Assembly: GCA_036874045.1 (NCBI GenBank)
Contig: CM072341.1
Span: 3,422,501-3,486,500 of the forward strand
Reading direction: 5' to 3'
Source of the DNA: Cymodocea nodosa
Lineage: Eukaryota > Streptophyta > Magnoliopsida > Alismatales > Cymodoceaceae
DNA length: 64,000 nt
The notes beneath the pieces were generated by a model that saw only the letters and a list, made by a program, of their open reading frames with translations, was not told the DNA's origin and made no database searches. Both the position numbers and the translations under genes were made by a program. Shown in pieces: positions 3,458 to 53,555 of this stretch. Positions within the stretch are counted from its first letter, which is position 1, and each line of letters starts with the position of its first letter.

Positions 3458-3649
3458 TTGCAAGCCACGTTCTTGCAACGAGATTTATTCACTTTGTGGA
3501 TGCGCAGTATATATATGAAACAGAATATTATTTACGAGTTACCAGCACTTTTAAAAGAAAGGAGAAAGCGTTGGAGGAACTGGAAGGAGAAACAGCTGAT
3601 TCAACTTCATCCAACAACAAATATTTATAGAATGGAAAGCTTCAGACTG
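3458..3649 (+). other. Leader exon upstream of gag intron (copy A)
   Basis: This short conserved block ends in ATGGAAAGCTTCAGACTG at 3649, immediately before a GTATGT donor. The same block is found in B (40,385-40,627) and C (55,110-55,304). It encodes a short basic stretch (LPALLKERRKRWRNWKEKQ) in one frame, and an ATG near its end opens into the six residues MESFRL. In copy B this ATG leads without interruption into the F-box. It looks like the 5' exon of the F-box transcript; whether the basic stretch is translated is unknown. Confidence 0.6.
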
Positions 3650-5201
3650 GTATGTAATTAATCTTATGCTATTTATTTATGAGCACATGGACTCGTTCTC
3701 TAAGTACTAAACGATTAGTAAGAACACCTACCTAGGAATTTTCATTGCAGAGGAGTACTGAAAAATTTTCTGAACTGAACTTTAACGAAATTCTTTGGGG
3801 TGTAGCTAACCTTTATTTAAAAGAGAACGTAGAGATGGCTGCTCCAGTAGAAAAACCATTAGGAGAGATTCTGTATCCTGAATTAATTGATGAATATTCA
3901 TGTATTCGATTGCCAAACTTTGAGGGAGATAGGTTTGAACTGAAATCTAATTATATTAGTCAATTGCCACATTTTCATGGATTAGAAAGAGAGGATGCCT
4001 ATTATTTCCTTAGAGAATTTAACGAAGTTTGTCAAATGATGAGAATGCCGAACATGAGTAAAGATGCTATTAAACTTAGATATATCCCTTTTGCTTTAAA
4101 AGATACAGCTAAGAGATGGTTATATACTCTGTCGCCTGATTCAATTTCTACATGGACTGAATTTTGCTCTGTTTTTCTAGAAAAATACTATCCAACACAT
4201 CAAACGATTAAAAAGAAGAAAGAAATATTAATGTGTAGCCAAAAACAGGGTGAATCATTCTGGAAATATTTTGAAAGATTTAAAGATTTACTGACTCAAT
4301 GTCCATATCATGCAATGAGTAAAGCACAATTAATAGGCATAATTTATGAAGGCATAGATGTTTCAACGAAATCTTTATTAGAATCTACTTGTCAAAATGG
4401 ATTTTTAAAATTATGTTGTGAAGAAGCATGGGCTTATTTAGAAAATTTTGCAAAAAGAACTGCATAGTGGGAAAATTCGGCTGAAGCTATTGCAGATAAA
4501 AGATTATTGCCAAGAGAAATGCATGAAATAGATTCCAATACTATGCTTGAGGTGAAATTAAATGAATTAACAAAGAAAATAGAATAGTTATCATTAAATC
4601 AAAAGCTAGCAGAAAAGAATCCAAACATAAATGACTTAGATATTATTTATGCTAGAAACCAGAGAGATAACTTGGGAAATTCTTATAATCCTAATTGGAG
4701 AAATCACCCGAATTTATCTTGGAGAAACAACAATTTCTAGGGAGGAGAAAATATAAATGAGAAGAACATAAGTTATGAAGTATTAATTGAACAAGGAGCT
4801 AGAATAAAGAAATTAGAAAAGATAATCCAACAAGTAAACAATTGTTTAGAATTTATATTTGAAAATGCTACAAATCAAAATCAGAAGAGAAATATATCAC
4901 TTAGACAGAAGGAACCAATGGAAGTTAGACCTACTAGAGGATTGCCAATATAAGCTATACTTAATCCTATCAATAGAACGGTTAATGAAATTGATACCTC
5001 TTCTGGAAGTTCAGCTGAATGAAGCAGCATATCTGAAGCAACTATCTGTATGTATATATGTTTTATTTTAAGTTAATAATATCATAGAGTTAATTTTTAA
5101 CTCAACAAACTTAGTTCGTTGAGTTATGCCTTAACTCCACGAGGGTGTGCAGTAGTTATGTTAATTTTTGTCTCTGCTAAATTTTTGTTTTTATTTTACA
5201 G
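3650..5201 (+). other. Candidate GT-AG intron containing gag (copy A)
   Basis: The segment starts GTATGT at 3650 and ends TTTTATTTTACAG at 5201, with a pyrimidine-rich run before the AG. It is 1,552 bp long. Copy C has the equivalent segment at 53,556-55,109 (1,554 bp). Copy B lacks it exactly: at 40,627/40,628 the two flanks abut with no extra or missing base. That pattern is what a retained versus spliced intron would give. The gag frame starts about 30 bp inside the donor, so an unspliced RNA would present gag and a spliced RNA would present the F-box protein. The intron also holds GAGTTA/TAACTC motifs near 5090-5145. Confidence 0.75.
3679..5071 (+). pseudogene. gag: Athila-like gag (copy A)
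   Basis: Retrotransposon gag, the structural protein that forms the virus-like particle. The frame opens at ATG 3679, just after the intron donor, by comparison with copy C (MSTWTRSPSTKR). It contains the plant Ty3 gag domain: 'LPHFHGLEREDAYYFLREF', 'AKRWLYTLSPDSISTWTEF' and 'QKQGESFWKYFERFKDLL' follow in the usual order. After that comes a helical region and the Athila-typical 'NWRNHPNLSW' motif near 4695-4723. No zinc knuckle is seen in this ORF; a CCHC motif occurs instead in the leader ORF of copy B. It is broken, with a handful of breaks. The unusual point is its position, downstream of pol and inside an intron. Confidence 0.8.
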
Positions 5202-5210
5202 AATCGACAA

Positions 5211-6350
5211 ATGGAATTAATGCAATTACCGTTGGATGCACTAAGGGAAATACTAAGTAACTTGTCAGCTAAAGATCTGTGCAGGCTATGTTGTGTATCA
5301 AAGGAAATTAAAGACTGTATTGAAGAAAAATAGTTTTAGAGATTACAAGCTGCAAAAATGACTAAGATTAGAGATGGATTCATATGGAGGTCATTTAATC
5401 GTAGTTCAAATACTCATGAATATCTGGCTATGGAAGAAACTACTGGAATTCCACCCAATGCATTAGAAGGAATGAGTCATATTATGGGGATAGATGAAGG
5501 ATTAATCATATACAAGACGAGACCAAGGTATGCAAGTTTATCATTACCTGATATTTTGATAAGAAATCCTATAACAGGAGAAGAATGTAATATAGGAAGA
5601 CCTAATATATTTGAAGCACCAACTGAAAATTGTGGGTCAGCTTTAATATTTTCTAATAAGAATTCTGCAATTCCTGAAAAATTATATTATTGGAGACCTA
5701 CAGGAAATTGGGGTGAAGATTTATGCTTAAGTGTGTATAATTTTCTAAACAGATCTTGGAATGAAAACATTATAATATATCTAGGACAGAAATCATTAAT
5801 TAACCAAACACATGTCATACTTGATGGTTATATCTATTTAGTCACGGAGATATCAATGGCGTATAGATCTGATTTATACATAGTGAGCATAGACAGTTAT
5901 GATGATTACATAGAAATTTTACCTGTACCGAGTGAAATAGCTAAACCACCATTTGCAGAATTTAATGAAATTCAAATAGGAATGTGGTATAATGAAGAAG
6001 ATGATCCTACTTTATGTCTGATAAGATGGTGGGATGAACTGATGAAATTTCAAATATAGATTATAGAAGACATGAATGAATGGAAGTGGGAAGAGGAGTA
6101 TATTGAAATAGATGTAGAAATAGAAACTGCTACATTACCCTTGAACCAAAAATGATCCCTTTCTGCATTACATATCATTAATGGTAATACACTCGTATTT
6201 GGAATTTATAAAATATTGCATGTTTACAAATTAAAAAGGAACAAGAAATGCATTAAAATAGAATTAATAGCAAGAAAAACTATGCCTAAAAAGTTTGCTT
6301 GGATTGATACATTTATTCCATTTGTTTCTACTTTTAAATCATGTTCTTAA
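5211..6350 (+). pseudogene. F-box protein carried by gypsy element (copy A)
   Basis: The N-terminus 'MELMQLPLDALREILSNLS' followed by 'AKDLCRLCCVSKEIKDCI' fits the F-box motif (LP-x-DLL-x-E-I/V-L-x-x-L, then a VSKxW-like end), which in plants docks to SKP1/ASK proteins in SCF ubiquitin ligases. The rest resembles an F-box-associated domain: 'DILIRNPITGEE' near the middle is the usual 'xNPxTGE' signature, and later parts include 'VSIDSYDDYIEILPVP' and 'LIRWWDELMKFQI'. It sits directly after the gag intron and before the 3' untranslated region. It is broken, with several breaks. Homologues at 40,610 and 52,408 show it is a fixed part of the family. The F-box call is confident; the substrate is unknown. 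Confidence 0.8.
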
Positions 6351-22166: not shown

Positions 22167-22315
22167 GGCATAGAATTCTCGTTGATCAATCCATCCTTGC
22201 ACACAAAAAGAAAAATCTTTTCAAGGATCAAACCATCCCTGCACACCAAAAGAAAAATCTTTTTCAAGGATCAAAAACACCTTCTCGGGGAAAATCTCTC
22301 AAGTGGAAGAAACTT

Positions 22316-22682
22316 CAGTGAAGCATAAAAAGGTAAGATTTTCATCACTGAAGATTTGAAGTATCAGAAGAAAGCAAATTCAGTGAAGCATAAAAAGGTA
22401 AGATTTTCGTCACTGAAGATTTGAAGTATCAGAAGAAAGCAAATTCAGTGAAGCATAAAAAGGTAAGATTTTCGTCACTAAAGATTTGAAGTATCAGAAG
22501 AAAGCAAATTCAGTGAAGCATAAAAAGGTAAGATTTTCGTCACTGAAGATTTGAAGTATCAGAAGAAAGCAAATTCAGTGAAGCATAAAAAGGTAAGATT
22601 TTCGTCACTGAAGATTTGAAGTATCAGAAGAAAGTAAATTCGGTGAAGCATGAAAAGACAAGATATTCGTCACTGAAGAATT
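22316..22682 (+). repeat. 65-bp tandem repeat in LTR-Y, about 5.5 units
   Basis: Units beginning AAGCATAAAAAGGTAAGATT start at 22,321, 22,386, 22,451, 22,516, 22,581 and 22,646, an exact 65-bp period with very few differences between units. Other LTR-Y copies (14,400-14,560 and 47,340-47,460) have only about two degenerate units, so this array expanded recently in this copy. Confidence 0.9.
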
Positions 22683-29236: not shown

Positions 29237-29329
29237 AAAGCATACATTTGCCAGATTTTCTTCTGAATCTGATGATGATGAGGATTCATTGTTTGATGTT
29301 GAACCCTTTGTTTCTTCACTTTGTGAAGC

Positions 29330-29635: not shown

Positions 29636-30126
29636 ATCTCTTCTAGGATTTTTCCCTTTTGGATCTAAATGTTGTACTTCATAGGCTGTAGATTTCCTAC
29701 GAGATCATCAAGAGTATATGTATTTAAGTCTTTGGACTCTTTAATAGATGTTGTCTTTTGAGCCTAAATTTAAGCTAAAGATCTAAGGATCTTTCTTACC
29801 AAGTCTTTTTCCTCAAATTTTTTGCCTAAAGATTTTAATGAATTTACAATCTCAAGAAAACGGGAAAACATGTCAGAGATACATTCATTTTCATGCATTT
29901 TAAAAAGCTCATATTTATGTACTAACATATTGATCTTAGACTCCTTGACCTGATTAGTACATTCGTTGGTAAACTTCTAATGCATGCCATATCTCATATG
30001 CAGTTTGATATGTAGAAACTTTATTAAATTGATCATGAGATAAAGCACAAAACAAGATGTTTAAACCTTTAGCATTCAATGTCATTAGCTCCTTTTCATC
30101 AAAAGTCCAAGTATCATATGGAGTCG
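29636..30126 (-). pseudogene. gag: Copia X gag capsid part, interrupted by gypsy B
   Basis: The minus strand reads 'TPYDTWTFDEKELMTLNAKG' and 'LNILFCALSHDQFNKVST' then 'AYEIWHALEV', the standard copia gag (UBN2-type) capsid domain. Gypsy B is inserted immediately upstream; the N-terminal piece lies on the other side at 45,687-45,852. Broken elsewhere too. Confidence 0.85.
30122..30126. repeat. Target-site duplication AGTCG, left copy (gypsy B)
   Basis: AGTCG just before the 5' LTR of gypsy B. The partner AGTCG is at 45,682-45,686. Five bases is the expected length for Ty3/gypsy integration. Confidence 0.9.
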
Positions 30127-32182
30127 TGTTTAGAATGAAAAAGTACATATTATTAATGGTTAAATGATGGTTAATTGCATAATATTTAGCTTATCATATG
30201 AGAATTAAGCCATTATGTTATAATTGCACTGTTATATGCTTTAATTAAAGAATCTGCTTAAATTGGGGGAATTAATATCAATTTAGTACATTTCTGAACT
30301 ATCGGTAAGTTGCAGGCTGTGAAATTCTTAAGTATCCGAATTTTCTGATATTTCAGATAGTTATGTTTAACATACCGAACATGTATCAGATAGTTATGTT
30401 TAAACTGTCGAACAGTTATGTTTTAAAAGAATATTTTATTATTTCCTGAAGTACATGTGTCGAAACCATAATGCATGACTTAAGTGAACTTTCGGTGAGT
30501 TATCTATAACTATCCGAAATTGCAGCTGGGCATCGGACAGTTATATGTGTAACTCTTTGAAATCTCTTTTTATTTATAAAATAGCTGTTGACACGTGTCA
30601 TGTTCTGGGAAAGTGACTTAAGTAGATTTTCGGTGAGTTATTTGTAACTATCCGAAATGCATCTAAGCATCAGATAGTTAAGTTTATAAGTATCTGAAAT
30701 GCATCTGAGCATCGGATAGTTAAATTTATGCACGTGTTTTATAGTTAAAACAACGAAGAAAGTCCGCTGAGTTATCTGTAACTCCACAGACTATTTATTT
30801 TCTAATATGCCATTGTAGCGGTTGCAGGAACAAACAGTTGGAAGAAAAAAACCACGATCGCACGTATCATGCAGGAATTCACTCGTTGAAGGGAGAAGAA
30901 ATCATCGTCGTTGATATGAATGAAGGAAATCCAACCGACCATTCAAGTAGAATCGGTTACCATTGAAGAAATATAAAAGAAAAGAAGAAAAAGAAGTAAA
31001 GTATGTGTGATCGATGGGTGGCCAGTCTGTACAAAGGAGGAGCACCGAGCTTTCTGTAGACAGTGTTGGCAATTCTCTGAAGTACCACACCAACCATCAT
31101 TACCACCACCATAACCACCATAATCACCAACCATCGGAGGTCTGTGAGAATACTTTCTTGATGTCGGGTCGATTCCAAGCCAAACACGGTGCCTAACACC
31201 CACTATGAGGAGTGATCGCGTCGCGGGAAGGGAAGCCATTTTCACCAAGTGCCGACTCATTTCAAGAGATTGTAAAGCTTTTAGCCTTGGCTTCGGGTTG
31301 ATGCTTATATGTTGAAGAGGAGATCATCTTACAATTCTGGACTCGTGATTCTATAGGGAGAGGAGATAGAATTGTAAGTGGTTTAATTTTCAGTGGTGTA
31401 ATCGTGTCGTATGTAGTGATAGAAGTATTTACTATCGATTGAGATTACTTTACATTTCACATTTCACTCAATTTCATGTTCATATTAAAACAAAAATACC
31501 AAAAACAATTTATCTATGTTTGTATGTTGTATTTGAGTGTTGTATTGTTTGTGTTGTATCGTGATTAATGTTATCTTTATCAGTGTTGTGATTGTTTTAT
31601 GTTAGTTTTAGTTTTACAGTTTACTGAAATTGGTTCAATCAAAAGCCTTAAAAATTTTAATGGTTACTGTTTGAATTATCTAAATGTTAGTTTGCTTAAT
31701 GATAAATCCAATGTTACTAACATTAAAGAGCTTAATTGATGTTATTTACAATTTGTGGAATCGCCCAATGGTTGGCCAAAATCCTCTGTAAATAGCAGTA
31801 TTTGAAAAGAAAAGACATGCTCGTGGAGTTAACTTAAGTCCACGAGGTTAGTCCGTTGAGTTAGTTATAACTCAACAAACTTTGTCCGTTGAGTTAATTG
31901 TAATTCAACGGAGAGCTTATTGAATATATAAATTTGATTGTTAACAAACGGACAGTTCTAAATTCTTAAGCAATTCCCTATGGGATCGACCTGTACTTGC
32001 ACACTAATACAATAGACACTGTGCACTTGCAGTTAAAGTAGAAATTGGAATTAATATCTAAATTGTATTAAATGTTGTTTGTTTACTTCTAAAAAAGAAA
32101 AGGCATAAAGATAAATTAACTAAGTAAAAATAGAAGTAACAAATCCAAGTTTTTCTAGTGTCATGCTGAGAAAATCCAAACA
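30127..32182 (+). repeat. Gypsy B 5' LTR (LTR-Z)
   Basis: 2,056 bp, TGTTTAG...CAAACA. It holds paired TAACTATCCGAA / TCGGATAGTTA motifs (30,500-30,725), a 12-bp palindrome TGACACGTGTCA at 30,589-30,600, and a GAGTTA/TAACTC palindrome block at 31,820-31,912. It is shorter than the 3' LTR because one block between two near-identical palindromes is represented once here and twice there. Confidence 0.92.
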
Positions 32183-32189
32183 AGTTTTA

Positions 32190-32207
32190 TGGTGTCGTTG
32201 TCGGGGA
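32190..32207 (+). promoter_or_regulatory. Primer-binding site of gypsy B (tRNA-Asp type)
   Basis: TGGTGTCGTTGTCGGGGA, seven bases after the LTR. It matches, apart from two positions, TGGCGCCGTTGCCGGGGA, the complement of the plant tRNA-Asp 3' end used by Athila-like elements. Minus-strand DNA synthesis starts here. Confidence 0.88.
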
Positions 32208-32267: not shown

Positions 32268-32531
32268 GTGTTTTCTTTTGTAATTGAGAATATGGCATAT
32301 GCTTATGCTCAAAGATTTTTGAAACCTGTAGTTAACATATGTGAATTCTGCAATTCTGAAGGACACGACATTTCTGATTGTTTGAAACTGAGATGTTTGC
32401 AGATGGTTAGATCCCATGAACAACAAATGAATTATCCTCAGTATAATAGAGCCGAGTATGAGAATCCTATTGTTTACCCAACTGATGGTCAGTATAGTAT
32501 GTGTAATATGTTGAGAGACATTGAAGTTTGA
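32268..32531 (+). CDS. Gypsy B leader ORF with CCHC zinc knuckle
   Basis: A small 87-codon frame 60 bp after the primer site. It contains 'CEFCNSEGHDISDC', a CX2CX4HX4C zinc knuckle of the nucleocapsid type, at residues 22-35. The rest shows no further domain. In ordinary Athila elements a capsid domain precedes such a knuckle; here no room exists for it between the primer site and this ORF. The knuckle has therefore been separated from the capsid gag, which in A and C lies near the 3' end. Copy C keeps only the part after this ORF (61,620-61,860). Confidence 0.65.
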   Translation: MFSFVIENMAYAYAQRFLKPVVNICEFCNSEGHDISDCLKLRCLQMVRSHEQQMNYPQYNRAEYENPIVYPTDGQYSMCNMLRDIEV

Positions 32532-33283: not shown

Positions 33284-33286
33284 AAA

Positions 33287-34249
33287 ATGCCACCTTATGC
33301 TAAATTTCTTAAGGATTGGTGTACTAAGAAAAGAGAGCAAAAAGTTCTTAGAAATGTCTTTTTAGCTGAGCAAAGTAGTTCCTTATTTCTGCCACAAATT
33401 CCAAAAAAGTTATCTAATCCTAGAATCCTTGTTATATCATGTACCATAGGAAATACCTTTCTAGAAAGAACCTTAATAGACTTAGGTGCAGGTATAAATG
33501 TTATGTCAAGTGATATATTTGCATCCTTAGGATTAGAAGGCTTAACTCGTACTAGTACGGTTATTCAATTAGCTGATAGAAGTATAAGATACCCTAGAGG
33601 AAAAATAGAGGATGTTTTAATTAAAATAAAATTTTTTATATATCCTATTGATATTGTAATTTTGGATTCCCAACAAATTAAACATAAAAATAGTGATACA
33701 TCTTTAATTTTGGGAAGGCCATTTTTAGCAACATCAGTGGCTATTATAAATTGTAAGACTAGAGTAATGAAGTTAGCATATGGTATTAAGGATACTCAAT
33801 TAGATATTTTCAAACCAGAAAGGTTTGAGGAGTTAGAAATGTCCTTACATACCATAGACTTTTTAGAGGATGAAGGAGATATGTTAGATGATGTGATTCA
33901 AGAAGAATTAAATAGGCAAATCAATTCTGAAACTTTAGAGGAAAGTGAAAGTATAAACATAGAAGGAGATCTAGAAGAAATTAATTTAGAAAATGATGAT
34001 GTTCAATTAGGAGCTCTAGCTTCTGATGGGCAACATTTAGAATTAAAACTTTTACCTCCTGAATTAACCTATATATTTCTGGAAGATAAACGAACTTGTC
34101 TAATCATTATTGCTTCAGATTTAAAAGAGGATCAAATTGCTAAATTAAAAGATGTAGTAAAAAGTTATAAAGAAGCAATAAGATGGACTATGACTGATAT
34201 AAAAGGGTTAAGTTCAACTTTATGCTGTCACCACATATATTTAGAATAG
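33287..34249 (+). pseudogene. pol: Gypsy B aspartic protease and RT entry
   Basis: Cuts the polyprotein. The 320-codon frame carries the Athila-type core 'TLIDLGAGINVMSS' at residues 61-74, with the catalytic Asp in DLGA, and 'SLILGRPFLATS' (the second protease motif) further on. After an acidic hinge rich in Glu and Asn it runs into the entry of RT ('IIASDLKEDQIAKLKDVVKS', 'AIRWTMTDIKGLS'). Matches 60,250-61,143 of copy C. Confidence 0.9.
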
Positions 34250-35613
34250 AATGCTAAACCTATTAGAATTCCTGAGAGGAGATTAAATCCAAACCTTAAA
34301 GAAGTAGTCAGGAAGGAAATAGTGAAATGGTTAGATAATGACATAATTTATCCGATTTCTGATAGCTCGTGGGTTAATCCAATCCATGTAGTTCCCAAGA
34401 AATCAAAATTAACAGTTATTAGGAATGAAAGTCAAGACATGATACCTACTAGAATTCAATCAGGCTGGAGAGTATGTATAGACTATAGAAAACTGAATGC
34501 TGTGACTAGGAAAGATCATTTTCCCTTACCTTTTATAGATCAAATGCTGGAAAGATTAGCAGGCAAGAATATTTTTGTTTCCTAGACGGGTATTCAGGTT
34601 ATAATCAAATTTTAGTAGCATTAGAGGATCAAGAGAAAACAACTTTCACCTGTCCTAATGGAACTTATGCTTTTAAGAAAATGCCATTCGGATTATGCAA
34701 CACACCAGCTACCTTTCAAAGGTGTATGCAGGGCATATTTACTAGAATGATTGAAGATTTCTTAGAAATATTTATAGATGATTTTACTGTATATGGAAAC
34801 TCATATAAAGTCTGTTTAAAAAATTTAGACTTAATATTAAAACGTTGTGTGGAAAAAAATATGGTTTTAAATAGGGAAAAATGTCACTTCATGGTTAAAC
34901 AAGGAATAGTCTTAGGGCATGTTGTTTCTAAGAAAGGGTTGGAAGTAGATAAAGCTAAAATAGAAGTAATTTCTAATCTACCCGAACCTAAATCAGTAAA
35001 AGATATTAGATCATTTCTAGGACATGTTGGTTTTTATCGAAGATTTATTAAAGACTTTAGCAAGATAGCTAGACCTTTAACTAATCTATCAAAAGATGTT
35101 CCATTTAACTTTGATAAAAATTGCAAGGAAGTATTTCTTAGACTTAAGACTAGCTTAATTTCAACTCCTATAATTCAAGCACTTGATTAGAGACATCCAT
35201 TTGAATTAATGCGCGATGCTTCAGATTTTGCTGTAGGAGCAGTGTTGGGACAGAAGATAGAAAAATCTCCTAGAGTGATTCATTATGCAAGCAAAACCTT
35301 AAATGATGCTCAAGTTAATTACACAACTACTGAAAAAGAATTATTAGCTGTTGTGTTTGCTATAGAAAAGTTTAGATCATATCTGATTAGAGCTAAAGTA
35401 ATAGTATACATGGATCATTCAGCTCTAAAACATCTAATAAAGAAAAAAGAAACTAAACTTAGATTGATCCGATGGATATTATTATTACAAGAATTTGATC
35501 TAGAAATTAAAGATAAAAAAGGTTGTTAGAATGTAGTAGTAGATCATTTATCAAGATTACAAATAGAAAAATCAAATATTGAAATTAAGGATAATTTTCC
35601 TAATGAACAATTA
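34250..35613 (+). pseudogene. pol: Gypsy B reverse transcriptase and RNase H
   Basis: Copies element RNA into DNA and removes the RNA strand. RT motifs in order: 'GWRVCIDYRKLNAVTRKDHF', 'MPFGLCNTPATFQRC', catalytic 'FIDDFTVYG', 'RSFLGHVGFYRRFIKDFS'. RNase H follows: '[16 protein letters not shown]', '[20 protein letters not shown]', 'MDHSALKHL' and '[15 protein letters not shown]'. All are standard Ty3/gypsy. Several breaks. It is followed without a gap by integrase. Confidence 0.92.
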
Positions 35614-36936
35614 ATGACCATCAACACAATACCTTGGTATGCATACATAGTTAATTACTTAGTTACTGGTCTAACACCTAAGGATTGGAATAGACATGAT
35701 AAGAAATTATTTTTCTCGAGAGTAAAATATTACTATTGGGAAGACCCATACTTATTTAAGAAATGTCCTGATTTGGTTTTAAGGAGGTGTGTTCTTGAAA
35801 CTGAATATCTGAGCATATTGTCTTTTTATCATGACCAAGCTTGTGGAGGGCATTTTGGTTCAGGGAAAACTGTTACAAAAATTCTGCAATGTAGGTTTTA
35901 TTGGCCAACACTATTCAAAGATGCTCATAAATATTGCTTAAGTTGTTTAAGATGTCAACAAATAGGAAGAATATCAAAGAGGAATATGATGCCTCTTAAT
36001 TCTATTGTTGAGGTTGAAATCTTTGATGTGTGGGGAATAAATTTTATGGGTCCATTTCCTATGTCTAATCAATTTAATTACATATTGTTGGGGGTGGATT
36101 ATGTATCTAAATGGATAGAAGCTATTCCTACAAAAACTAATGACAACAAAGTGGTAATACAATTTATAAGAACCAATATATTTGCCAGATTTGGAATACC
36201 TAAAGCTATTATCAGTGATAGAGGAACTCATTTCTGTAATAGATATTTTGAAGCCTTAATGAAGAAATATGGAGTAAACCACAAAATTGCAGCATCATAT
36301 CATCCGCAAACAAGTGGACAAGTAGAAAGTGCAAACAAACAAATTAAATTAATCTTAGAAAAAGTAGTAAATCCTACTAGAACAGATTGGGCTAATAGAT
36401 TGATAGATGCACTTTGGGCTTATAGAATTGCTTATAAAACGAGCTTAGGTATATCACCTTTTAGGTTAGTATATGGAAAAAGTTATCATTTACCAGCTGA
36501 AATAGAACGTAAAGCTTATTGGGCATTAAAAACTCTGAATACTAATTTAAATCAAGCTACTGAAAATAGAAAAATGCAATTAATTGAATTAGAAGAATTT
36601 AGAAATGAAGCTTATTCGAAGACTGTAAGAGAAAAAGAGAAAATGAAATTCTGGCATGATAGGAAAATTATTCTAAAAGGCTTTGAAATAGGACAAGAAG
36701 TATATCTTTATATGGTTAGACTCCATAACCATCTAGGAAAATTAAGATCTAGATGGGCAGGACCTTACATAGTTCGAAATATTTATCCTTATGGAGCTAT
36801 TGAAATTGAAAATCCTAAAAATCAGAATATATTTAAAGTAAATGGACAAAGACTTAGACGTATTCTGAAAACACCAAAAAACTCCTTTGGAATTATAGAA
36901 GAAGTTAGAGTAGAGGACTACTCGAGCTTTACTTAG
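35614..36936 (+). CDS. pol: Gypsy B integrase
   Basis: Open for 440 codons. The zinc-binding H73, H80, C111 and C114 (YHDQACGGH...CLRC) precede the catalytic triad D138 (FDVWGINFMGPF), D202 (SDRGTHF) and E238 (TSGQVESAN), with the 35-residue D-E spacing of retroviral integrases. The Athila-type 'SYHLPAEIERKAYWALKTLN' follows, then a C-terminal part with 'RWAGPYIVRNIYPYGAIEI'. No chromodomain is seen, as expected for the non-chromovirus Athila/Tat branch. It is the longest open frame in the window and lies at the end of pol, followed by a palindrome-rich gap and ORF3. Confidence 0.93.
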   Translation: MTINTIPWYAYIVNYLVTGLTPKDWNRHDKKLFFSRVKYYYWEDPYLFKKCPDLVLRRCVLETEYLSILSFYHDQACGGHFGSGKTVTKILQCRFYWPTLFKDAHKYCLSCLRCQQIGRISKRNMMPLNSIVEVEIFDVWGINFMGPFPMSNQFNYILLGVDYVSKWIEAIPTKTNDNKVVIQFIRTNIFARFGIPKAIISDRGTHFCNRYFEALMKKYGVNHKIAASYHPQTSGQVESANKQIKLILEKVVNPTRTDWANRLIDALWAYRIAYKTSLGISPFRLVYGKSYHLPAEIERKAYWALKTLNTNLNQATENRKMQLIELEEFRNEAYSKTVREKEKMKFWHDRKIILKGFEIGQEVYLYMVRLHNHLGKLRSRWAGPYIVRNIYPYGAIEIENPKNQNIFKVNGQRLRRILKTPKNSFGIIEEVRVEDYSSFT

Positions 36937-37507: not shown

Positions 37508-39706
37508 ATGAGGAAGATGACACCTGAGTTCTGGGAAGATGTAGTTGACACAACATAGTTTCTGAAGGAATCAGAAGAATGGTACACGCGGTAAAAGATT
37601 CGGAATACGACAAGAGAAAAAGAGTTACAAAAGGTAGAATCTGAACTTTTTAGATTAAGAAAAATATTAGTAGATTGTGGTATACAAATACCCCAAATAA
37701 TGGAGACACGAATCAGAGTAGCAACAGAAATTGTAGTTAGTAAAGAAAGAAAAATTCGGCTAAACAACGAAGTAGCCCTAGAGCTAATTCAGCGCAAGGC
37801 CAGATTGTGGTTTAAAAGGCGCATTGCTGGTCGTGGAAGTTGGGAAATATGGCAACAGCAACAAGCAGGAGAATAGGAAGAACCGACTACTGAAAGACCT
37901 GTTCCTGAGGAACAGCAGTTAGGACCTCCTGTTCAGCCAACAGAGCCATTGCCACAAGTAGCATTTGCTTGGCCGAGAACTAATGAAGAAGAGAAAGAGT
38001 TTACTAGCTTGGTCAAAATAGCAAGAGACCAAGGTGATAACGAAGAAATAGCTACAGCTAAGGCACATATTTTATATGATGCCATTAAGAAAAAAAGGGT
38101 CGAAGAAAAGTTGAGGGCCCAATACAGAATAAAGGTTGAACAACATCAGGTAGCAACTAAATCAAGTGCTGCAAGAGAAGCTGAGGCTGGTCCTTCAAGA
38201 ATAGTAATTATAGAGAGAATTAAATAGGAAGAGCCAGTACCTGTGGCTCGAAAGCCTGTAGAGCCTACTTTTGTAGATTTAATCTCAAAAGAAGAAGAGG
38301 AAGAATAGGCACAATTAATCAGAAAAAGGAAAGGAAAAGAGAAAATGCCTGACTATCAAAAAGAGATTAAATTTGAGGTACCAATTTTAACAGGGCATGT
38401 GGAGCAAATTTTAAAAACCTACTATCCGATTCTGAGGAGGAGCAGGAGCTGTAGCAGTAGGAGCAAAGACAAGAAGAAAAATAGACTGAAATTAATCTGC
38501 AGCTTGTACAAGAAGAAAGAACAGAAATTAGGGTAGAAACTGAATTGCCCATGACTCCATCCCAATCTATTACAGAATCAGAAAGAACAGTGACAGAACA
38601 GATTGGTAGTCAGGAGGAAGAAGAAAGAGTAGAAAATGAAGAGGTTGAAAGAAGCCATTTGGACAAAAATAACTTTACAGATTCCACTGAAGAGCAAGAA
38701 ACTCTTCAGCAATTTATGGAAAGAATTCAAGACAGAGTGGAGAGTTCTGCTGGCTCAACCATAGATAGAAGTAGAAGCAAAAATTTAGGAATTTGTAGAG
38801 AATGTTCAAATGCAGCCTATAGTAGAGGAAGATCAAAAACAAACCTCTCTGGAACAACAAAGTCACATTCCTGACCCAACTGAAACAACAGTTCTGAATG
38901 AGGTACATTTTTGGAGTTAGGAAGCTTATATTAAATATCAAGAAAATAGGGGTTACGATATTATTTATAGTAGACCAGTAAATTGGGATGAATGCAAGAA
39001 ATCAAAGAATTATTTGAATTCCAAGGTCTACTGAATTTTATTTCTCAAGAAAGAGGGCATGCAGTTTTTGAGATTTTAGTACCCTGTTTCTATGCAAATT
39101 TAAGAGAAGGTGACGGAGGATTAATTTCCAACATGGAGGAAGCTGATGTACAGATAACACCAGAGCTTCTCCACAACATTTTTGGATTAAAGAATGAAAG
39201 ACTAAAAATTTTGGAAGACAATTGCAATTGAGTGGACAAAACAGGAAATCAAAGATAGTTTAGCTATCAATCTTGGTGTGCCTTTATTAAACAGATTGAA
39301 GCATTTAAATGGTAAAACATACATGGTAGCCAACATTTTGATTAAGAATGTTTATCAACGACAAGGCCATGACATAGAATTAAGTCAATTTGTCAAATGG
39401 GCCACGTTTGCAGTTGTAAATAGGATTCAAATAAATTGGTCTGCAGTTTTTATCTCCAAGTTGAGAACAATAAAGAAGAAATTGTTTTATGGAGATTTGA
39501 TTCCACTACTGATGGTGGATTGTATTGATTTCACAAAATGGGCAACAAAAAGGATTAGATCTAGAATCATTTCAGTGAAAGAGTATAGAAATTTTGTAGC
39601 TGCAGAAATAGCTGTACCTTTAGGAGCTATAGAAAGAATTAATCAATTAGAGCTACAATTAGAAAAACTCCAGAAGGAAGTAGATGAACTTAGGAATAGA
39701 GATTAA
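37508..39706 (+). pseudogene. Gypsy B ORF3 (plant transposon-associated domain)
   Basis: A third gene after pol. From ATG 37,508 it begins 'MRKMTPEFWEDVVDTT', with a helical, charged N-terminal part ('NNEVALELIQRKARLWFKRR', 'KAHILYDAIKKKRVEEK'), a Glu-rich low-complexity middle, and a globular C-terminal domain at 38,992-39,706: 'EIKELFEFQGLLNFISQ', 'ITPELLHNIFGLKN', 'VKWATFAVVNRIQINWSAVF', 'KLFYGDLIPLLMVDCIDF', ending in a short coiled coil. The C-terminal domain resembles the Athila-associated domain (Pfam PF20167 type, from memory). No signal peptide or clear membrane span, so an envelope function is not supported. Broken in several places. Homologous to copy C 55,990-58,215 and, in its domain, to copia X ORF3. 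Confidence 0.8.
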
Positions 39707-40384
39707 ATTGTATTGTTCGTCTACTTGTATAGAATTGTATGAAAATTGTATGATGTACTTGTAATGTAAATTGATTCATATTAATGAATATAAATTTTTC
39801 AAATGTACTTTTCATACGTGTTTTGAATGTGAAATGAATGGAATGTATTGAATGTTATATATAATTTGTGGAACATTATGAATGAATGCTTAACAGATTT
39901 ACAATTTACTGAATGATAGGATAGATGCTTGAAAATTTTTGCATGTTGCAAGGTAAAATGTAAATTCTGCATAACATAAAATGACCTACAAGTTAAATAT
40001 TTATATAATGTTCAGATTTAAATGAATTTTTGATTAGAATGATGCATTAATGATATAGATTTAACTTTATTTCAGTTAGCAGAATGAAAAAGAAAAAAAA
40101 GCAGAGAGGAACTTACGAGAGTAAAACTTAGAGGTTGCTAAGTGTTAACTCAATGAAGTAAGTTCATTGAGTTAAACGTAACTCCACGAGGTCAGTAATA
40201 TAATATAAGGTCACTCCGTTGAGTTATTTGTAACTCAACGAAGTTAGTCTGTGGAGTTAGCAATAGTAACCGACTTTGTTCCATTGAATTATCTGTAACT
40301 CAACGAGGTTAGTTTGTGGATTAAGTAGAACAGTTATTCTTTTAACCACGAACGAAACTTTGTCGGTTTAGTGGTTACCAAAAT
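39707..40384 (+). other. Gap between ORF3 and F-box block in gypsy B
   Basis: No gene seen. The sequence matches 2748-3450 in copy A and 55,305-55,989 in copy C. GAGTTA/TAACTC palindromes cluster at 40,140-40,330, for example CTCCGTTGAGTTATTTGTAA at 40,215. The placement just before a gene block that is spliced in the family would suit an internal promoter or leader; this is an inference. Confidence 0.6.
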
Positions 40385-40627
40385 TTGAAATTAGTAGTGG
40401 TACACGTACCCATAAAAATAGGAACCACGATGCCCGTTGTAAGACATGTTCTTGCAACGAGATTTATTCATTTTATGGATGTGCATTATATATATAAACA
40501 GAATGTTATTTATGAGTTACCAGCACTTTTAAAAGAAAGGAGAATGCGTTGGAGGAACTGGAAGGAGAAGCAGCTGATTCGACTTCATCCGACAACAAAT
40601 ATTTATTGAATGGAAAGCTTCAGACTG
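40385..40627 (+). other. Leader exon of the F-box gene in gypsy B
   Basis: Equivalent to 3458-3649 in copy A and 55,110-55,304 in copy C. It includes the basic stretch 'LPALLKERRMRWRNWKEKQ' and ends at 40,627 with CTTCAGACTG. In A and C this same base is followed by GTATGT. In B it is followed directly by AATCGACAAATGG, the first bases after the intron end in A. Confidence 0.65.
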
Positions 40628-41773
40628 AATCGACAAATGGAATTGATGCAATTACCGTTGGATGCACTAAGGGAAGTACTAAGTAATTTGTCAGCTAAAG
40701 ATCTATGTAGGCTGTGTTGTGTATCAAAGGAAATTAAAGACTGTATTGAAGAAAAATATTTTCAAGGACTACAAGCTACAAAAATGACTAAGATTAGAGA
40801 TGGATTCAAATGGAGGTCATTTAATCGTAGTTAAATTAACCATGAATATCTGGCTATGGAAGAAACTATTGGAATTCCACCCAATACATTAGAAGGAATA
40901 GATCATATTATGGGGATAAATGAAGGATTAATCATATACAGGATGAGACCAAGGTATGCAAGTTTATTACCTGATATTTTGATAAGAAATCCTATAACAA
41001 GAGAAGAATGGTATTTTGGAAGACCTAATAGATATGAAGTACCAACTATAAATTGTGGGTCAGCTTTAATATTTTCTGATAAAAATTCTACAATTCCTGA
41101 AAAATTATATTATTGGAGACCTACAGGAAATTGGGGTGAAGATTTACGCTTAAGTGTGTATAATTTTCTAAATAGATCTTGGAATGAAAATATTATGATA
41201 TATCTAGGACAGAAATCATAAATTAACCAAACACATGTCATACTTGATGGATATATATATCTAGTCACAGATATATCAATAGCATTTGGATCTGATTTAT
41301 ACATAGTGAGCATAGACAGTTATGATGAAAATATAGAAATTTTACCTATACCGAGAGAAATAGCTAAACCACCATCTACAGAATTTAATAAAATTCAAAT
41401 AGGAATGTGGTATAATGAAGAAGATGATCCTACTTTATGTCTGATAAGATGGTGGGATGAACTGATGAAATTTCAAATATGGATTATGGAAGACATAAAT
41501 GAATGGAAGTGGGAAGAGGAATATATTGAAATAGATGTAGAAATAGAAACTGCGACATTACCTTGGAACCAAAAAGGATCCCTTTCTGTATTTCATATCA
41601 TTAATGGTAATACACTTGTATTTGGAATTTATAATATATTACATGTTTACAAATTAAGAAGGAACAAGAACTACATTAAAACAGAATTAATAGCAAGAAG
41701 AACTATGCCTAAAAAGTTTGCTTGGACTGACATGTTTATTCCATTTATTTCTACTTTTCAATCATGTTCTTAA
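40610..41773 (+). pseudogene. F-box protein carried by gypsy B
   Basis: An F-box protein gene, predicted to plug a target-binding C-terminal part into an SCF ubiquitin ligase in the host nucleus or cytoplasm. It opens at 40,610 with MESFRL and reads directly into the F-box: 'MELMQLPLDALREVLSNLS', 'AKDLCRLCCVSKEIKDCIEE'. The C-terminal part shows F-box-associated wording: 'GLIIYRMRPRYASLLPDILI', 'RNPITREEWYFGRP', 'VWxMEDINEW'-type 'IWIMEDINEWKWEEEYIEID' and 'NGNTLVFGIYNILHVYKL'. Size is about 385 residues, usual for plant F-box/FBA proteins. It sits between ORF3 and the 3' untranslated region on the element's coding strand. A few breaks. No RT-like or gag-like sequence is in it. Confidence 0.85.
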
Positions 41774-43502: not shown

Positions 43503-45681
43503 TGTTTAGAATGAAAAAGTGCATATTATTAACGGTTAAATGATGGTTAATTGCATAATATTTAGCTTATCATATGAGAATTAAGCCATTATGTTATAAT
43601 TACACTGTTATATGCTTTAATTAAAGAATTTGCTTAAATTAGGGGAATTAATGTCAATTTAGTACATTTTTGAACTGTTGGTAAGTTGCAGGCTGTGAAA
43701 TTCTTAAGTATCCGAATTTTCTGATATTTCAGACAGTTATGTTTAACATACCGAACATGTATCAGATAGTTATGTTTAAACTACCGAATAGTTATGTTTT
43801 AAAAGAATATTTTATTATTTCCTGAAGTACACGTGTCAAAACCATAATGCATGACTTAAGTGAACTTTCGATGAGTTATCTATAACTATCCGAAATTGCA
43901 GTTGGGCATCAGATAGTTATATTTGTAACTCTCCGAAATCTCTTTTTATTTATAAAATAACTGTGGACACGTGTCATGTTCTAGGAAAGTGACTTAAGTA
44001 GATTTTCGGTGAGTTATCTATAACTATCCGAAATGCATCTGAGAATCGGATAGTTAGACCTTTAACTCTCCGAAATGTTTCTTTTATTATTAAACTACTG
44101 TTGACATGTGTCGAGATTTGGTAGATTTACTTAAGTTATATATCGGTGAGTTATTTGTAACTATCCGAAATGCATCTAAGCATCAGATAGTTAAGTTTAT
44201 AAGTATCTGAAATGCATCTAAGCATCGGATAGTTAAATTTATGCACGTGTTTTATAGTTAAATCAACGAAGAAAGTTCGTTGAGTTATCTGTAACTCTAC
44301 AGACTATTTATTTTCTAATATGCCACTGTAGCGGTTGCAGGAACAGATAGTTGGAAGAAAAAAACCACGATCGCACGTATCATGCAGGAATTCACTCATC
44401 GAAGGGAGAAGAAATCATCATCGTTGATATGAATGAAGGAAATCCAACCGACCATTCAAGCAGAAGTAGTTACCACTGAAGAAATATAAAAGAAAAGAAG
44501 AAAAAGAAGTAAAGTGTATGTGATCGATGGGCAGCTAGTGTGTACAGAGGAGGAGCACCAAGCTTTCTGCAGACAGTGTCGGCAATTCTTTGTAGTACCA
44601 CACCAACCATCATTACCACCACCATAAACACCATAATCACCAACCATCAGAGGTCTGTGAGAATACTTTCTTGATGTCGGGTCGATTCCAAGCCAAACAC
44701 GGTGCCTGACACCCACTGTGAGGAGTGATCACGTTGCGGGAAGGGAAGCCATTTTCACCAAGCGCCAACTCATATTTCAGGAGATCGTAAAGCTTCTAGC
44801 CTTGGCTTCGGGTTGATGCTTGCATGTTGAAGAGGAGATCATCTTGGAATTCTGGACTCGCGATTCTATAGGGAGAGGAGATAGAATTGTAAGTGGTTTA
44901 ATTTTCAGTGGTGTAATCGCATCGTATGTAGTGACGGAAGTATTTACTGTTGATTGAGATTACTTTACATTTCACCTTTCACCCATTTCCATGTTCATAT
45001 TAAAGCAAAAATACCAAAAACAATTTATCTATGTTTGTATGTTGTATTTGAGTGTTGTATCGTGATTAATGTTATCTTTATCAGTGTTGTGATTGTTTTA
45101 TGTTAGTTTTAGCTTTACAGTTTACTGAAATTGGTTCTATCAAAAGCCTTAAAAATTTTAATGGTTACTGTTTGAATTATCTGAATGTTAGTTTGCTTAA
45201 TGATAAATCCAATGTTACTAACATTAAAGAGCTTAATTGATGTTATTTACAATCTGTGGAATCGCCCAATGGTTGGCCAAAATCCTCTGTAAATAGGAGT
45301 ATTTAAAAAGAAAAGACATGCTCGTGGAGTTAACTTAAGTCCACGAGGATAGTCCGTTGAGTTAGCTATAACTCAATGAACTTTGTCTGTTGAGTTAACT
45401 GTAATTCAACGGAGAGCTTATTGAATATATAAATTTGATTGTTAACAAAAGGACAGTTCTAAATTCTTAAGCAATTCCCTATGGGATCGACTTGTACTTG
45501 CACACTGATACAATAGACACTATGCACTTACAATTAAAGTAGAAATTAGAATTAATATCTAAATTGTATTAAAGGTTGTTTGTTTACTTTTTTTAAAAAA
45601 AAGACAAAGATAAATTAACTAAGTAAAAACAAAAGTAACAAATCCAAGTTTTTCTGGTGTCGTGCTGGGAAAATCCAAACA
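43503..45681 (+). repeat. Gypsy B 3' LTR (LTR-Z)
   Basis: 2,179 bp, TGTTTAG...CAAACA, followed by AGTCG. It contains one extra palindrome block of about 120 bp (about 44,040-44,165) compared with the 5' LTR, bounded by near-identical GTGAGTTAT...AACTATCCGAAATGC copies, so the difference probably arose by slippage or recombination between them. Confidence 0.92.
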
Positions 45682-45686
45682 AGTCG

Positions 45687-50677: not shown

Positions 50678-52407
50678 CCTAAATTTTGCTAATCCCTTAG
50701 CAAACTAAGATCTAATTAATTGGTTTTTAAAAGTGCTAGAATTAATTCTTCCCCTTTTGTTTAGCATAAAAATATATTCTATATGTTTCAGTAATCAACC
50801 TACAAAGATACTTAGAATATATGTAAATTACATACAAAGTATATCATCATCATATAGGTGTTAATTATATTATCGTTTGTTCTTCTTTTCATCATCTGTA
50901 ATCTTGAATTTTCCAATAAGATTTCTAGAAGAAATTTCAACAACATACGAATCAAAGTACAATCCAATTCAATTTGATTAAGACAAGTAGAATAAAGAAT
51001 TATATCTCCATTAAACAATTTCAAAAATCAATTCCAGATTCATATTTCAGCAATTCTAGATAACAAAAAATATACTCGATTCATAAGATATCTGTATTTC
51101 ACAAAACACTAGTATCTTTTCAGAATAGTATATGCTTTTTTTTATTTTTCTTCTTTTTTTTTCTTTAAGAGTTAATTTGACAAGCTTGAATCATACAAGA
51201 GCTTTCTAATGTACCTATGTAACGAGCTTTTAGTCAACAATCCCAGATCTGATTAGGATCTTAGGTTGCCAGATTTCAAGAGTCCTTTTTTAGGTCAACA
51301 ATCCTTACATACCTATCTACTCAAGTACAAAAGGCTCGTGATCAAACAAGTCAATAAACTCTCAAAATTTTCCTCTTTTTTTTTCTTTCAATCGAAACTA
51401 CAAACACAAAACAAAACATTAATCACTTACTATATATGTACGTATTTCATTAATACAGATGCAGTAAAACACTAATCTCATATAGTTCTGCTTCTATCAT
51501 TTACTGAAAATATGCATCCATCTCAATAAGCTCATACTTTTTCTATAGTTTAATAAGATCTACACATAAATCATTCTACAAGTTCAATCAGTCAAATTAA
51601 ATGTATCTTTAATCATATGTGTTTTATTTAATCTAGAATTCACATCTCAGCTCCTTCAGGACTTAAGATAAATTTCTGATTAAGCATTAAATATTCTGAT
51701 TTCATTTTAAAATTGTGAAACTGTTAAAATCATGAACTTCAGAAAAAACATAAGATACTATATCTAGATTTACATAAATAATAAATTCTATAGCATCTTC
51801 TATAGCCTTCTAAATATAACATTCAAGTAGTTTATAAAAATTTTACAATCTCAATTATCGGATAGTTACAGCAAGTTCATAAAAAATTTTCAATTTCCTC
51901 AAAACTTTGCAGTACCATTTTAATTCCTTTAATTAACAAACTTACATGGATGTTACTTTAATTACCTCCCCCCTATACCTACATTTTGCATTGTCTTCAA
52001 TGTAAAAGATTTGACAATAAATAAAGATTTTATAAAGTTTTGTTTGATTTAAAATTTAGGATAAGTAATTGGTTACATACCTTGTTCCATTTGTATCTCC
52101 TTCTGCATATTCCGATTTTTGATTCTGAAAAACTTTTCATTCCTAGATAAACACAAAATATATAACAAATAACATTTAATAGATATTGATAATTCAGTAT
52201 CTTGTGTGGAACCCAGGCTCCTATGCCTTTGGTGGCTCACAAGCAAGCCAGTTGGTTTCCTAGAACAGATACCAACAAACTGGATTGATATTTTGTTTTG
52301 TTTGTTGTTTTTTTTTTTATAAAATGAACATGAAAACTTCAAAATTCCCTTTTTTTTTTCTAAAAATAAATGCAGAATTCACAACGTTAAACACACAAAA
52401 TCATAAC
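50678..52407 (-). other. Gypsy C 3' untranslated region
   Basis: Matches 6351-8074 in A and 41,774-43,492 in B on the opposite strand. The internal purine tract is at 51,965-51,976 (CCTCCCCCCTAT on the plus strand), within the conserved TACATTTTGCATTGTC context. No gene recognised. Confidence 0.7.
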
Positions 52408-53546
52408 TTAAGAACATGATTGAAAAGTAGAAACAAATGGAATAAATGTATCAGTCCAAGCAAACTTTTTAGGCATAGTTTTCTTGCTATTAATTCTGTT
52501 TTAATGCAGTTCTTGTTCCTTCTTAATTTGTAAACATGCAATATATTATAAATTCCAAATACGAGTGTATTACCATTAATGATATGTAAAGCAGAAAGGG
52601 ATCCTTTTTGGTTCTAGGGTAATGTAGCAGTTTCTATTTCTACATTTATTTCAATATACTCCTCTTCCCACTTCCATTCATTTATGTCTTCCATAATCCA
52701 TATTTGAAATTTCATCAGTTCATCCCACCATCTTATCAAACATAAAGTAGGATCATCTTCTTCATTATACCACATTCCTATTTGAATTTCATTAAATTCT
52801 GCAGATGGTGGTTTAGCTATTTTACTCGGTATAGGTAAAATTTTCATATAATCTTCATAACTGTCTATGCTCACTATGTATAAATCAGATCTATATGCTA
52901 TTAATATCTCTATGACTAAATAGTTATATCCATCAAGTATGACATGTGTTTGGTTAATTAATGATTTCTGTCCTAGATATATTATAATGTTTTCATTCCA
53001 AGATCTGTTCAGAAAATTATACACATTTAAGCGTAAATCTTCACCCCAATTTCCTGTAGGTCTCCAATAATATAATTTTTCAGGAATTGCAAAATTTTTA
53101 TCAGAAAATATTAAAGCTGACCCACAATTTACAGTTGGTGCTTCAAATCTATTAAGTCTTCCTATATTCCATTCTTCTCCTGTTATAGGATTTCTTATCA
53201 AAATATCAGGTAATAATAAATTTGCATCCCTTGGTCTCGTCTTGTATATGATTAATCCTTCATCTATCCCCATAATATGATTTATTCCTTCTAATGCATT
53301 GGGTGGAATTCCAGTAGTTTCTTCCATAGCTAGATATTCATGGGTATTTGAACTACGATTAAATGACCTCCATATGAATCCATCTCTAATCTTAGTCATT
53401 TTTGCACCTTGTAGTCCCTGAAAATATTTTTCTTCAATATAGTCTTTAATTTCCTTTGATACACAACACAGCCTGCACAGATCTTTAGCTAACAAGTTAC
53501 TGAGTACTTCCCTTAGTGCATCCAACGGTAATTGCATCAATTCCAT
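52408..53546 (-). pseudogene. F-box protein carried by gypsy C
   Basis: The best preserved of the three F-box copies: one frame of 310 codons runs from 53,546. Residues 2-42 form the F-box ('MELMQLPLDALREVLSNLL', 'AKDLCRLCCVSKEIKDYIEE'). The remainder is F-box-associated-like: 'GLIIYKTRPRDANLLLPDIL', 'IRNPITGEEWNIGR', 'IPEKLYYWRPTGNWGEDL', 'FLNRSWNENIIIYLGQKS', 'DPTLCLIRWWDELMKFQI' and 'WIMEDINEWKWEEEYIEI'. The full gene extends to about 52,408 by comparison with B. Few breaks. It lies just after the gag intron on the element's coding strand. Amino-acid agreement with A and B over the whole length, with far fewer breaks than expected for junk, suggests it was under selection while the family was active. 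Confidence 0.85.
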
Positions 53547-53555
53547 TTGTTGATT

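What the first reader, a model, noticed from the sequence alone, without database searches (positions are those of the whole stretch)
3650..5201. Gag lies inside an intron that copy B lacks exactly at GT...AG borders
In copies A and C the leader ends CTTCAGACTG followed by GTATGT, then about 1.55 kb holding gag, then AATC(G/A)ACAAATGG. In copy A the stretch ends TTTTACAG. Copy B joins CTTCAGACTG to AATCGACAAATGG with no base gained or lost (40,627/40,628). A random deletion would hardly hit both splice borders. The simplest reading is that B descends from a spliced RNA that was packaged and reverse-transcribed. The family would then make gag from unspliced and the F-box protein from spliced RNA, like env splicing in retroviruses but with gag as the intron.
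Basis: partly seen in the sequence, partly recalled or inferred. Interest (0 to 1): 0.92.

Follow-up and report, generated by a model that had tools for sequence, protein, structure and literature searches.

The report
Capsid gene inside a spliced intron
A very abundant plant LTR retrotransposon keeps its capsid gene behind its polymerase genes, inside an alternatively spliced intron in front of an F-box gene, and about two hundred genomic sites with the intron cleanly missing look like spliced RNA that was copied back into DNA.

Summary
In the window's own genome (374.6 Mb; up to 3 mismatches) the unspliced donor occurs 2,697 times and the exact spliced junction 202 times; two off-site joins occur 0 times. 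Sampled intronless copies are scattered over the family tree (at least 6 state changes forced by well-supported branches on either flank; one clade rejected), so reverse transcription of spliced RNA looks recurrent. A second join, predicted first, from a donor behind gag (5048) to the same acceptor, occurs 13 times: gag is better called an alternative exon. The larger surprise is that this family's gag is split: the capsid half sits in the 3' unit, the zinc-knuckle half remains 5', leading into pol, without capsid; pieces of one genomic element are collinear across both halves. Best reading: an Athila-like element that makes capsid and F-box protein by alternative splicing of one 3' unit. There were no RNA data, and all gag copies I read carry stops.

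The parts
3508..3515 (+). TATATATA, possible TATA box of the 3' unit in copy A; 141 nt before the end of exon 1
   Evidence: equivalent in B at 40487. Promoter function is inferred
3632..3649 (+). coding end of exon 1 in copy A, ATG...CTG (MESFRL); in unspliced RNA it opens a 9-codon ORF that stops before the gag ATG
3650..5201 (+). long intron of copy A (distal donor GTATGT, acceptor TTTTACAG), holding gag
   Evidence: 202 genomic sites with the two borders joined
3679..5022 (+). gag ORF of copy A, capsid half without zinc knuckle; decayed, in-frame stops present
   Evidence: PF03732 9.7e-20 on 3736-4464; canonical gag N-terminus; no knuckle
5049..5201 (+). intron 2 of copy A (proximal donor GTATGT behind gag, same acceptor), T-rich
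   Evidence: 13 genomic joins of the 5048 and 5202 borders, 5 read; 46% T against 29% in gag
5202..6350 (+). exon 3 of copy A, F-box protein gene (decayed)
   Evidence: the F-box domain call is on copy C
30122..30126 (+). target-site duplication AGTCG, left of element B (right copy 45682-45686)
   Evidence: read
30127..32182 (+). 5' LTR of element B
   Evidence: LTR-LTR identity 1931/2042 (94.6%) with bounds set 1-4 nt wider
32190..32207 (+). primer-binding site TGGTGTCGTTGTCGGGGA, tRNA-Asp-like
   Evidence: 467 sites with this surrounding in the genome; tRNA identity recalled, compare PMC1142308 passages
32292..32528 (+). start of the 5' ORF of B, with zinc knuckle CEFCNSEGHDISDC at 32340-32381 and no capsid domain; decayed (stop after 79 codons)
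   Evidence: no Pfam match
33284..36936 (+). protease, reverse transcriptase and integrase region of B (broken into several frames)
   Evidence: the protease matches (PF13650 3.1e-4) are below the curated cutoff
37508..39710 (+). post-pol ORF 'X' of B (decayed); the C copy has a PF20167 match below the curated cutoff
40487..40494 (+). TATATATA of the 3' unit in copy B
40610..40627 (+). exon 1 coding end in B, joined without intron to exon 3
40628..41773 (+). exon 3 of B (F-box protein gene, decayed), in frame with exon 1
   Evidence: FBA_1 0.0022 on 41222-41770, below the curated cutoff
43503..45681 (+). 3' LTR of element B
53556..55108 (-). long intron of copy C, donor intact, acceptor decayed to AA; gag ORF starts at 55079
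52406..53555 (-). exon 3 of copy C, F-box protein gene
   Evidence: PF00646 3.1e-08 on 52617-53576

Best explanation
This is a high-copy Athila-like (OTA) Ty3/gypsy LTR retrotransposon whose gag has been split. The 5' ORF starts with the zinc knuckle and leads into protease and pol. The capsid half sits behind pol, in a separate 3' unit with its own TATA-like box. That unit has one short first exon, two alternative donors and one acceptor. The distal donor (3649) joins exon 1 to the F-box ORF and skips the capsid gene. The proximal donor (5048) removes only a 153-nt intron and keeps the capsid gene. Unspliced RNA is the template that keeps everything. Now and then LTR-to-LTR RNA, already spliced at one of these sites, is packaged and reverse-transcribed, leaving intronless copies such as B. 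Shown: the anatomy, the 202 and 13 exact junctions, the scattered distribution of the sampled intronless copies, and the split of gag in the copies read. Inferred: that splicing, not DNA deletion, made the junctions; internal promoter use; which RNA feeds which protein; that the two gag halves meet again in one particle.
For: Exact borders and chance estimate. Genome counts, up to 3 mismatches: unspliced donor 2,697, spliced junction 202 (65 perfect), backwards-read controls 0; two off-site joins 0 and 0. None of the 30 intronless loci fetched has a capsid match within 1.5 kb, against 34 of the 36 donor-bearing or leader loci L001-L036 (the leader-found ones were chosen by similarity to A). 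B is a complete insertion with LTRs and a 5-bp target duplication. Trees: 25 intronless against 19 intron-bearing rows need 14 changes on exon 3 (shuffled mean 14.5; 6 forced by starred branches; AU test of one clade p 5e-50); the leader side needs 8 changes, 6 forced. Intronless copies occur in both structural types: 16 X-type, 11 A-type, 3 unclassified of 30. The proximal-donor junction was predicted from reading and then found 13 times; 4 of 5 read keep a full-length gag stretch. Intron 2 is T-rich. Split gag: capsid profile matches above noise lie only in the 3' units of A and C, and the only knuckle outside a copia element is in B's 5' ORF; the canonical polyprotein P0016 maps to two separate places; 6 of 8 primer-binding-site loci repeat B's 5' end with no capsid match within 1.5 kb, the knuckle intact in 4, one residue short in 1, not recognisable in 1; four pieces read from one genomic element are collinear with both halves.
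Against: No RNA evidence of any kind. All gag copies in which I looked (A, C and 17 genomic copies) carry in-frame stops, and 4 of 19 acceptors read AA instead of AG. Selection tests are weak: gag A/C omega 0.65 (0.41-1.21), no lower than the other frames; shared against singleton variants give p 0.02 for gag, nothing for the F-box frame, and spurious signals in the other two F-box frames. The leader-side tree shows clustering of intronless copies (5 of 500 shuffles as low), so some may have amplified after losing the intron. Recombination between copies could spread the state. The trees use 30 of 202 and about 20 of 2,697 sites, not drawn at random. Of 23 relatives with long tails, 6 lack a recognisable knuckle, among them P0015 with capsid and protease, so knuckle loss beside capsid is not unique. 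The search for a canonical-order element in the same genome did not complete.
Confidence: 0.85

Rival explanations
1. The gag stretch was lost from B and the other intronless copies by DNA deletion (illegitimate recombination) that happens to fall on the splice borders.
For: Such deletions do occur in the family: A lacks B 37341-39652 with non-splice borders, and 2 of 17 intron-bearing copies have shortened introns of 768 and 1316 nt. One base of microhomology exists at the junction.
Against: 202 exact junctions against 0 for two off-site joins; strict splice-type borders at one site among 3,837 offsets; scattered occurrence on the trees.
Confidence: 0.02
2. One or a few splicing-and-reverse-transcription events happened long ago; recombination (template switching, gene conversion) and transposition of intronless elements then spread the state.
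For: Clustering in the leader tree and a supported intronless sister pair, L051/L054. Template switching is expected in LTR elements (general knowledge).
Against: Exon-3 labels are distributed like shuffled labels (14 against 14.5), and both flanks force 6 changes. Intronless copies occur in both A-type and X-type elements.
Confidence: 0.2
3. One reading: gag from unspliced RNA, F-box protein from spliced RNA, with no meaningful second donor; the 13 proximal joins are cryptic splicing.
For: The gag ATG (3679) lies about 30 nt inside the intron, just after the 9-codon exon-1 ORF ends in unspliced RNA. Distal joins outnumber proximal joins 202 to 13, though the proximal pattern lies in less conserved sequence. 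A single genomic site also joins exon 1 to an internal acceptor at 3751, so rare other splicing may occur.
Against: Intron 2 has T-rich, plant-intron-like composition and gag does not; the proximal GTATGT is kept in 12 of 18 readable copies; the gag stop lies 26 nt before the proximal donor (read).
Confidence: 0.3
4. The 3' capsid gene is a captured passenger: particles are built with capsid from canonical elements in trans, and the 5' capsid was simply deleted in the copies seen.
For: Such parasitism is reported for the gag-less BARE2 (PMC3735527, passages seen). The copies examined are decayed.
Against: The same capsid-less 5' end recurs in 6 of 8 fetched loci, with an in-frame ATG before the knuckle in 3. 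B's 5' ORF lacks the W-NHPN-W block that A's 3' capsid gene keeps, i.e. complementary losses. The capsid ORF stays close to canonical gags (54% identity to P0001 over 88% of the query).
Confidence: 0.15

Closest known systems
Athila / OTA lineage Ty3/gypsy elements (Diaspora, Calypso, Athila)
   Same: tRNA-Asp-type primer-binding site a few nt behind the LTR, RT and integrase type, capsid family PF03732, long post-pol region
   Different: Canonical members (e.g. Diaspora, passages of PMC1142308) have gag core, zinc finger, protease and pol in one 5' order; here capsid is behind pol and the 5' ORF starts at the knuckle
Loss of env by 'anomalous splicing' proposed for Diaspora (PMC1142308)
   Same: Proposes that a spliced genomic RNA can be reverse-transcribed and lose a 3' gene in one step
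   Different: There a hypothesis; here 202 exact junctions, and the gene lost is capsid
BARE and EVD/copia spliced Gag RNAs (PMC3735527 for BARE and copia; EVD recalled)
   Same: Alternative splicing sets the capsid output of an LTR element
   Different: [quoted passage not shown] here splicing skips capsid and junction-bearing DNA copies are plentiful
Ogre intron between gag-pro and RT (described in PMC6317226)
   Same: Facultative intron in an OTA element
   Different: Different place; it joins two ORFs instead of choosing between capsid and another protein
Foamy viruses (PMC7828637)
   Same: Works like: Pol is made without capsid and must be packaged by another route
   Different: There Pol comes from a spliced RNA; not related by membership
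TR-GAG elements (PMC8704663)
   Same: A-type copies (L069, L073) have the primer-binding site followed by the capsid unit without pol
   Different: They also carry the F-box gene and the alternative donors

Membership tests
Ty3/gypsy, OTA (Athila/Tat) | Ty3-type reverse transcriptase and integrase | tested here: met
   PF00078 9.6e-27 (C) and 1.2e-23 (B), PF00665 and PF17921 in B; Pfam does not separate Ty3 lineages and no lineage tree was built; domain order RT before integrase read
Ty3/gypsy, OTA (Athila/Tat) | tRNA-Asp-type primer-binding site | tested here: met
   32190-32207; genome variants; tRNA identity recalled, compare PMC1142308 passages
Ty3/gypsy, OTA (Athila/Tat) | capsid, knuckle, protease and pol in one 5' gag-pol order | tested here: not met
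Athila rather than Tat | RT phylogeny, absence of the additional RNase H | not tested
   no reference set was used
BARE-type spliced Gag RNA | splicing yields a Gag-only RNA | tested here: not met
   judged from DNA junctions only: the commonest of the joins searched skips the capsid ORF
Ogre-type intron | intron between gag-pro and RT | tested here: not met
   the intron lies behind pol and X
env-like plant retroelements (Bagy2) | post-pol ORF expressed from a spliced RNA | not testable with these tools
   no RNA reads
TR-GAG | LTRs with gag only, no pol | tested here: inconclusive
   L069 and L073 lack pol between primer-binding site and gag; their 3' LTRs were not traced and they also carry F-box sequence
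F-box proteins | F-box domain above the Pfam cutoff | tested here: met
   PF00646 33.6 bits, cutoff 20.5, in C
Retrocopy of spliced LTR RNA | intron absent exactly, inside a complete element with LTRs and target duplication | tested here: met
   B; only B was checked for both LTRs

The most novel reading that the evidence does not exclude
The family replicates with capsid and nucleocapsid-Pol as two separate proteins, as foamy viruses separate Pol from Gag, and uses donor choice in one 3' unit as a switch between a capsid phase and an F-box phase. The F-box protein would redirect host protein turnover, for instance of silencing factors as recalled for polerovirus P0. Because genomic RNA is spliced at an appreciable rate, the family keeps shedding capsid-less daughters that depend on capsid-bearing siblings.
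Probability: 0.3. Interest if true: 0.92.

Novelty: new variant of a known kind. Interest (0 to 1): 0.84.

Why it matters
It gives a direct, countable record of spliced genomic RNA re-entering the genome, something proposed for Diaspora (PMC1142308) and reported as not amplifiable for BARE (PMC3735527). It also shows an LTR element in which capsid and nucleocapsid-pol are no longer encoded together, so it raises a testable question of how polymerase and RNA enter the particle without a Gag-Pol fusion. About two hundred junctions in one genome make splice choice readable from DNA alone.

Tried and rejected
Idea that gag is translated from an exon 1 to 3751 splice (internal acceptor TTGCAG): only one genomic site shows that join, the AG is absent in some copies, and a canonical gag start lies upstream at 3679, so I dropped it as the main route. 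Idea that A carries long terminal inverted repeats of a DNA transposon: the inverted arms are an oppositely oriented LTR. Relatives of the F-box protein: none at E <= 0.001; its AlphaFold model is unusable, mean pLDDT 37.7. Subtracting pattern counts to bound gag-less copies with other borders failed, because the leader pattern finds fewer sites (2,114) than the donor pattern (2,697). A search of the own genome with the canonical polyprotein P0016 was asked 12 times and never answered. I first read L069 as possibly a canonical element with a 5' capsid; its sequence showed a pol-less A-type copy instead.

Full report
What is there. The three copies in the window belong to one Ty3/gypsy LTR retrotransposon family in a plant-like genome that is not named to me. 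Copy B is a complete insertion: 5' LTR from 30127, primer-binding site 32190-32207, a short 5' ORF, protease, RT and integrase to 36936, a post-pol ORF 'X', then a TATA-like box, exon 1, the F-box ORF and the 3' LTR to 45681, flanked by AGTCG. Its LTRs are 1931/2042 identical. A is truncated and has an oppositely oriented LTR upstream; C is on the minus strand and its upstream LTR stretch is rearranged.

The observation. It is exact: A 3650-5201, C 55108-53556, B junction 40627/40628. C's acceptor has decayed to AA. Only 13 of 3,837 possible 1552-nt deletions in A have GT..AG borders, and only this site passes the stricter splice-type test. Among the gaps of 40 nt or more listed, no other one has both borders.

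Genome survey. The window lies in G000 (374.6 Mb, 28 contigs). Patterns with up to 3 mismatches gave: exon 1 followed by the donor, 2,697 sites; exon 1 joined exactly to exon 3, 202 sites, 65 of them perfect and spread over 19 contigs, including B itself. The backwards-read controls gave 0. Two similar joins at neighbouring, non-splice positions gave 0 and 0. None of the 30 intronless loci fetched has a capsid match within 1.5 kb. The ratio 202 to 2,697 is a rough census by two different patterns, not a splicing rate.

Independent origins. I compared exon 3 from 30 of the 202 intronless sites (the first 30 perfect ones listed) plus B with 17 of 20 fetched intron-bearing sites (3 had no exon 3 in the stretch) plus A and C: 16 changes, 7 forced, one clade rejected with AU p 0.00016. 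After dropping 6 intronless rows that match A over less than 1,300 nt, 25 intronless and 19 intron-bearing rows need 14 changes; shuffled labels need 14.5; starred branches alone force 6; one clade is rejected (AU p 5e-50). On the leader side, 27 against 14 rows (7 rows dropped: 3 intron-bearing, 4 intronless) need 8 changes, 6 forced, one clade rejected; there the intronless rows do cluster more than chance (5 of 500 shuffles as low), but 7 of the 14 intron-bearing rows of that tree had been chosen for closeness to A. Counts of changes do not tell gain from loss; that the changes are losses is inferred from the exact splice borders. Intronless copies occur in elements that keep X (16 of 30) and in the A-type that lacks it (11 of 30; 3 unclassified).

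A second splice form. Behind the gag stop, A and C carry another GTATGT (5049 in A). I predicted a join of 5048 to 5202 and found 13, 5 of them perfect. Of 5 read, 4 keep a full-length gag stretch (1396-1398 nt from exon 1 to the junction) and 1 has an internal deletion. This 153-nt intron has 46% T, against 29% in gag, so gag looks like exon sequence. A third possible join, exon 1 to 3751, has a single genomic example. Gag is thus best seen as an alternative exon governed by two donors and one acceptor. In unspliced RNA the exon-1 ATG opens a 9-codon ORF that ends before the gag ATG (3679); in distal-spliced RNA the same ATG opens the F-box frame. Which RNA feeds which protein is inference.

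Split gag. The gag in the intron is a capsid protein (PF03732 9.7e-20) that keeps the canonical N-terminus and the W-NHPN-W block but has no zinc knuckle. The 5' ORF of B starts 85 nt behind the primer-binding site and reaches a CX2CX4HX4C knuckle after 16 codons, with no room for capsid. B's own 5' ORF is broken before protease; in L067 and L074 the frame that holds the knuckle stays open for 309 and 326 codons before its first stop. A canonical polyprotein from another source, P0016, with capsid, knuckle and protease in one chain, maps in the window to two places: its front part to the 3' units of A and C, its protease part to the 5' regions of B and C. Eight further primer-binding-site loci were fetched out of 467 sites. 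Six repeat B's 5' end with no capsid match within 1.5 kb (L067, L068, L070, L071, L072, L074; L070 has an internal deletion); the knuckle is intact in four, lacks one residue in L072 and is not recognisable in L068. Two (L069, L073) lack pol and lead into the A-type 3' unit. Four pieces read from one stretch of contig C2 (17646780-17661340) are collinear from knuckle ORF through RT and X to gag intron, F-box and LTR sequence; what lies between the pieces was not read. Of 23 relatives with long tails, 17 have a knuckle behind capsid by pattern and 6 do not, P0015 (capsid and protease) among them.

What is weak. There is no RNA. All gag copies in which I looked carry stops (A and C; 17 genomic copies). 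dN/dS between A and C for gag is 0.65 (0.41-1.21), no lower than the other frames, while X gives 0.28 (0.21-0.37) between B and C. Shared variants in gag are less often amino-acid changing than singletons (p 0.02), but the F-box frame shows nothing and its other frames show spurious signals, so that test is not reliable. The F-box protein has no relatives in the search, and its structure could not be modelled. The search for canonical elements in the same genome did not complete (12 tries, last).

Compared with what is known. I read passages of PMC3735527, PMC1142308, PMC6317226, PMC7828637, PMC11963269 and PMC8704663, and part 1 of 3 of PMC7264820. [quoted passage not shown] Diaspora's authors proposed that anomalous splicing of genomic RNA could remove a gene in one step. 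Ogre's intron lies between gag-pro and RT. Foamy viruses make Pol apart from Gag and package it by way of the genome. My searches for an F-box ORF in LTR elements, for gag behind pol and for spliced LTR copies either returned no paper or listings in which I saw no title or opening of an abstract that describes this arrangement (31, 87); they cover only the open part of the literature, by exact words.

Noticed in passing
window 37508-39710 (B) and 58215-55986 (C): The X region differs far more between B and C (dS 0.32) than gag, F-box or pol between copies (dS 0.06-0.13), which suggests recombination between subfamilies.
   Followed up: no
L069, L073 and copy A: A pol-less, X-less subfamily: primer-binding site joined to post-pol sequence, then exon 1, gag and F-box; resembles TR-GAG elements.
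   Followed up: partly
window 22242-22761: Tandem array with a 65-bp period.
   Followed up: no
window 25459-29704: Copia-type element (GAG-pre-integrase, integrase and RT-like ORFs) on the minus strand just upstream of B.
   Followed up: no
window 2568-2692, 3160-3350, 5095-5145, 9575-9699 and LTRs: A short imperfect palindrome-like motif (...ccgttgagttaactgtaactcaacggag...) recurs between modules, inside the intron and in LTRs (seen).
   Followed up: no
window 58215-58330 (minus strand): In front of the X ORF there is a TTATTTAAA box and an AAACCTAGGGTTTT telo-box-like stretch, perhaps another internal promoter (motif name recalled).
   Followed up: no
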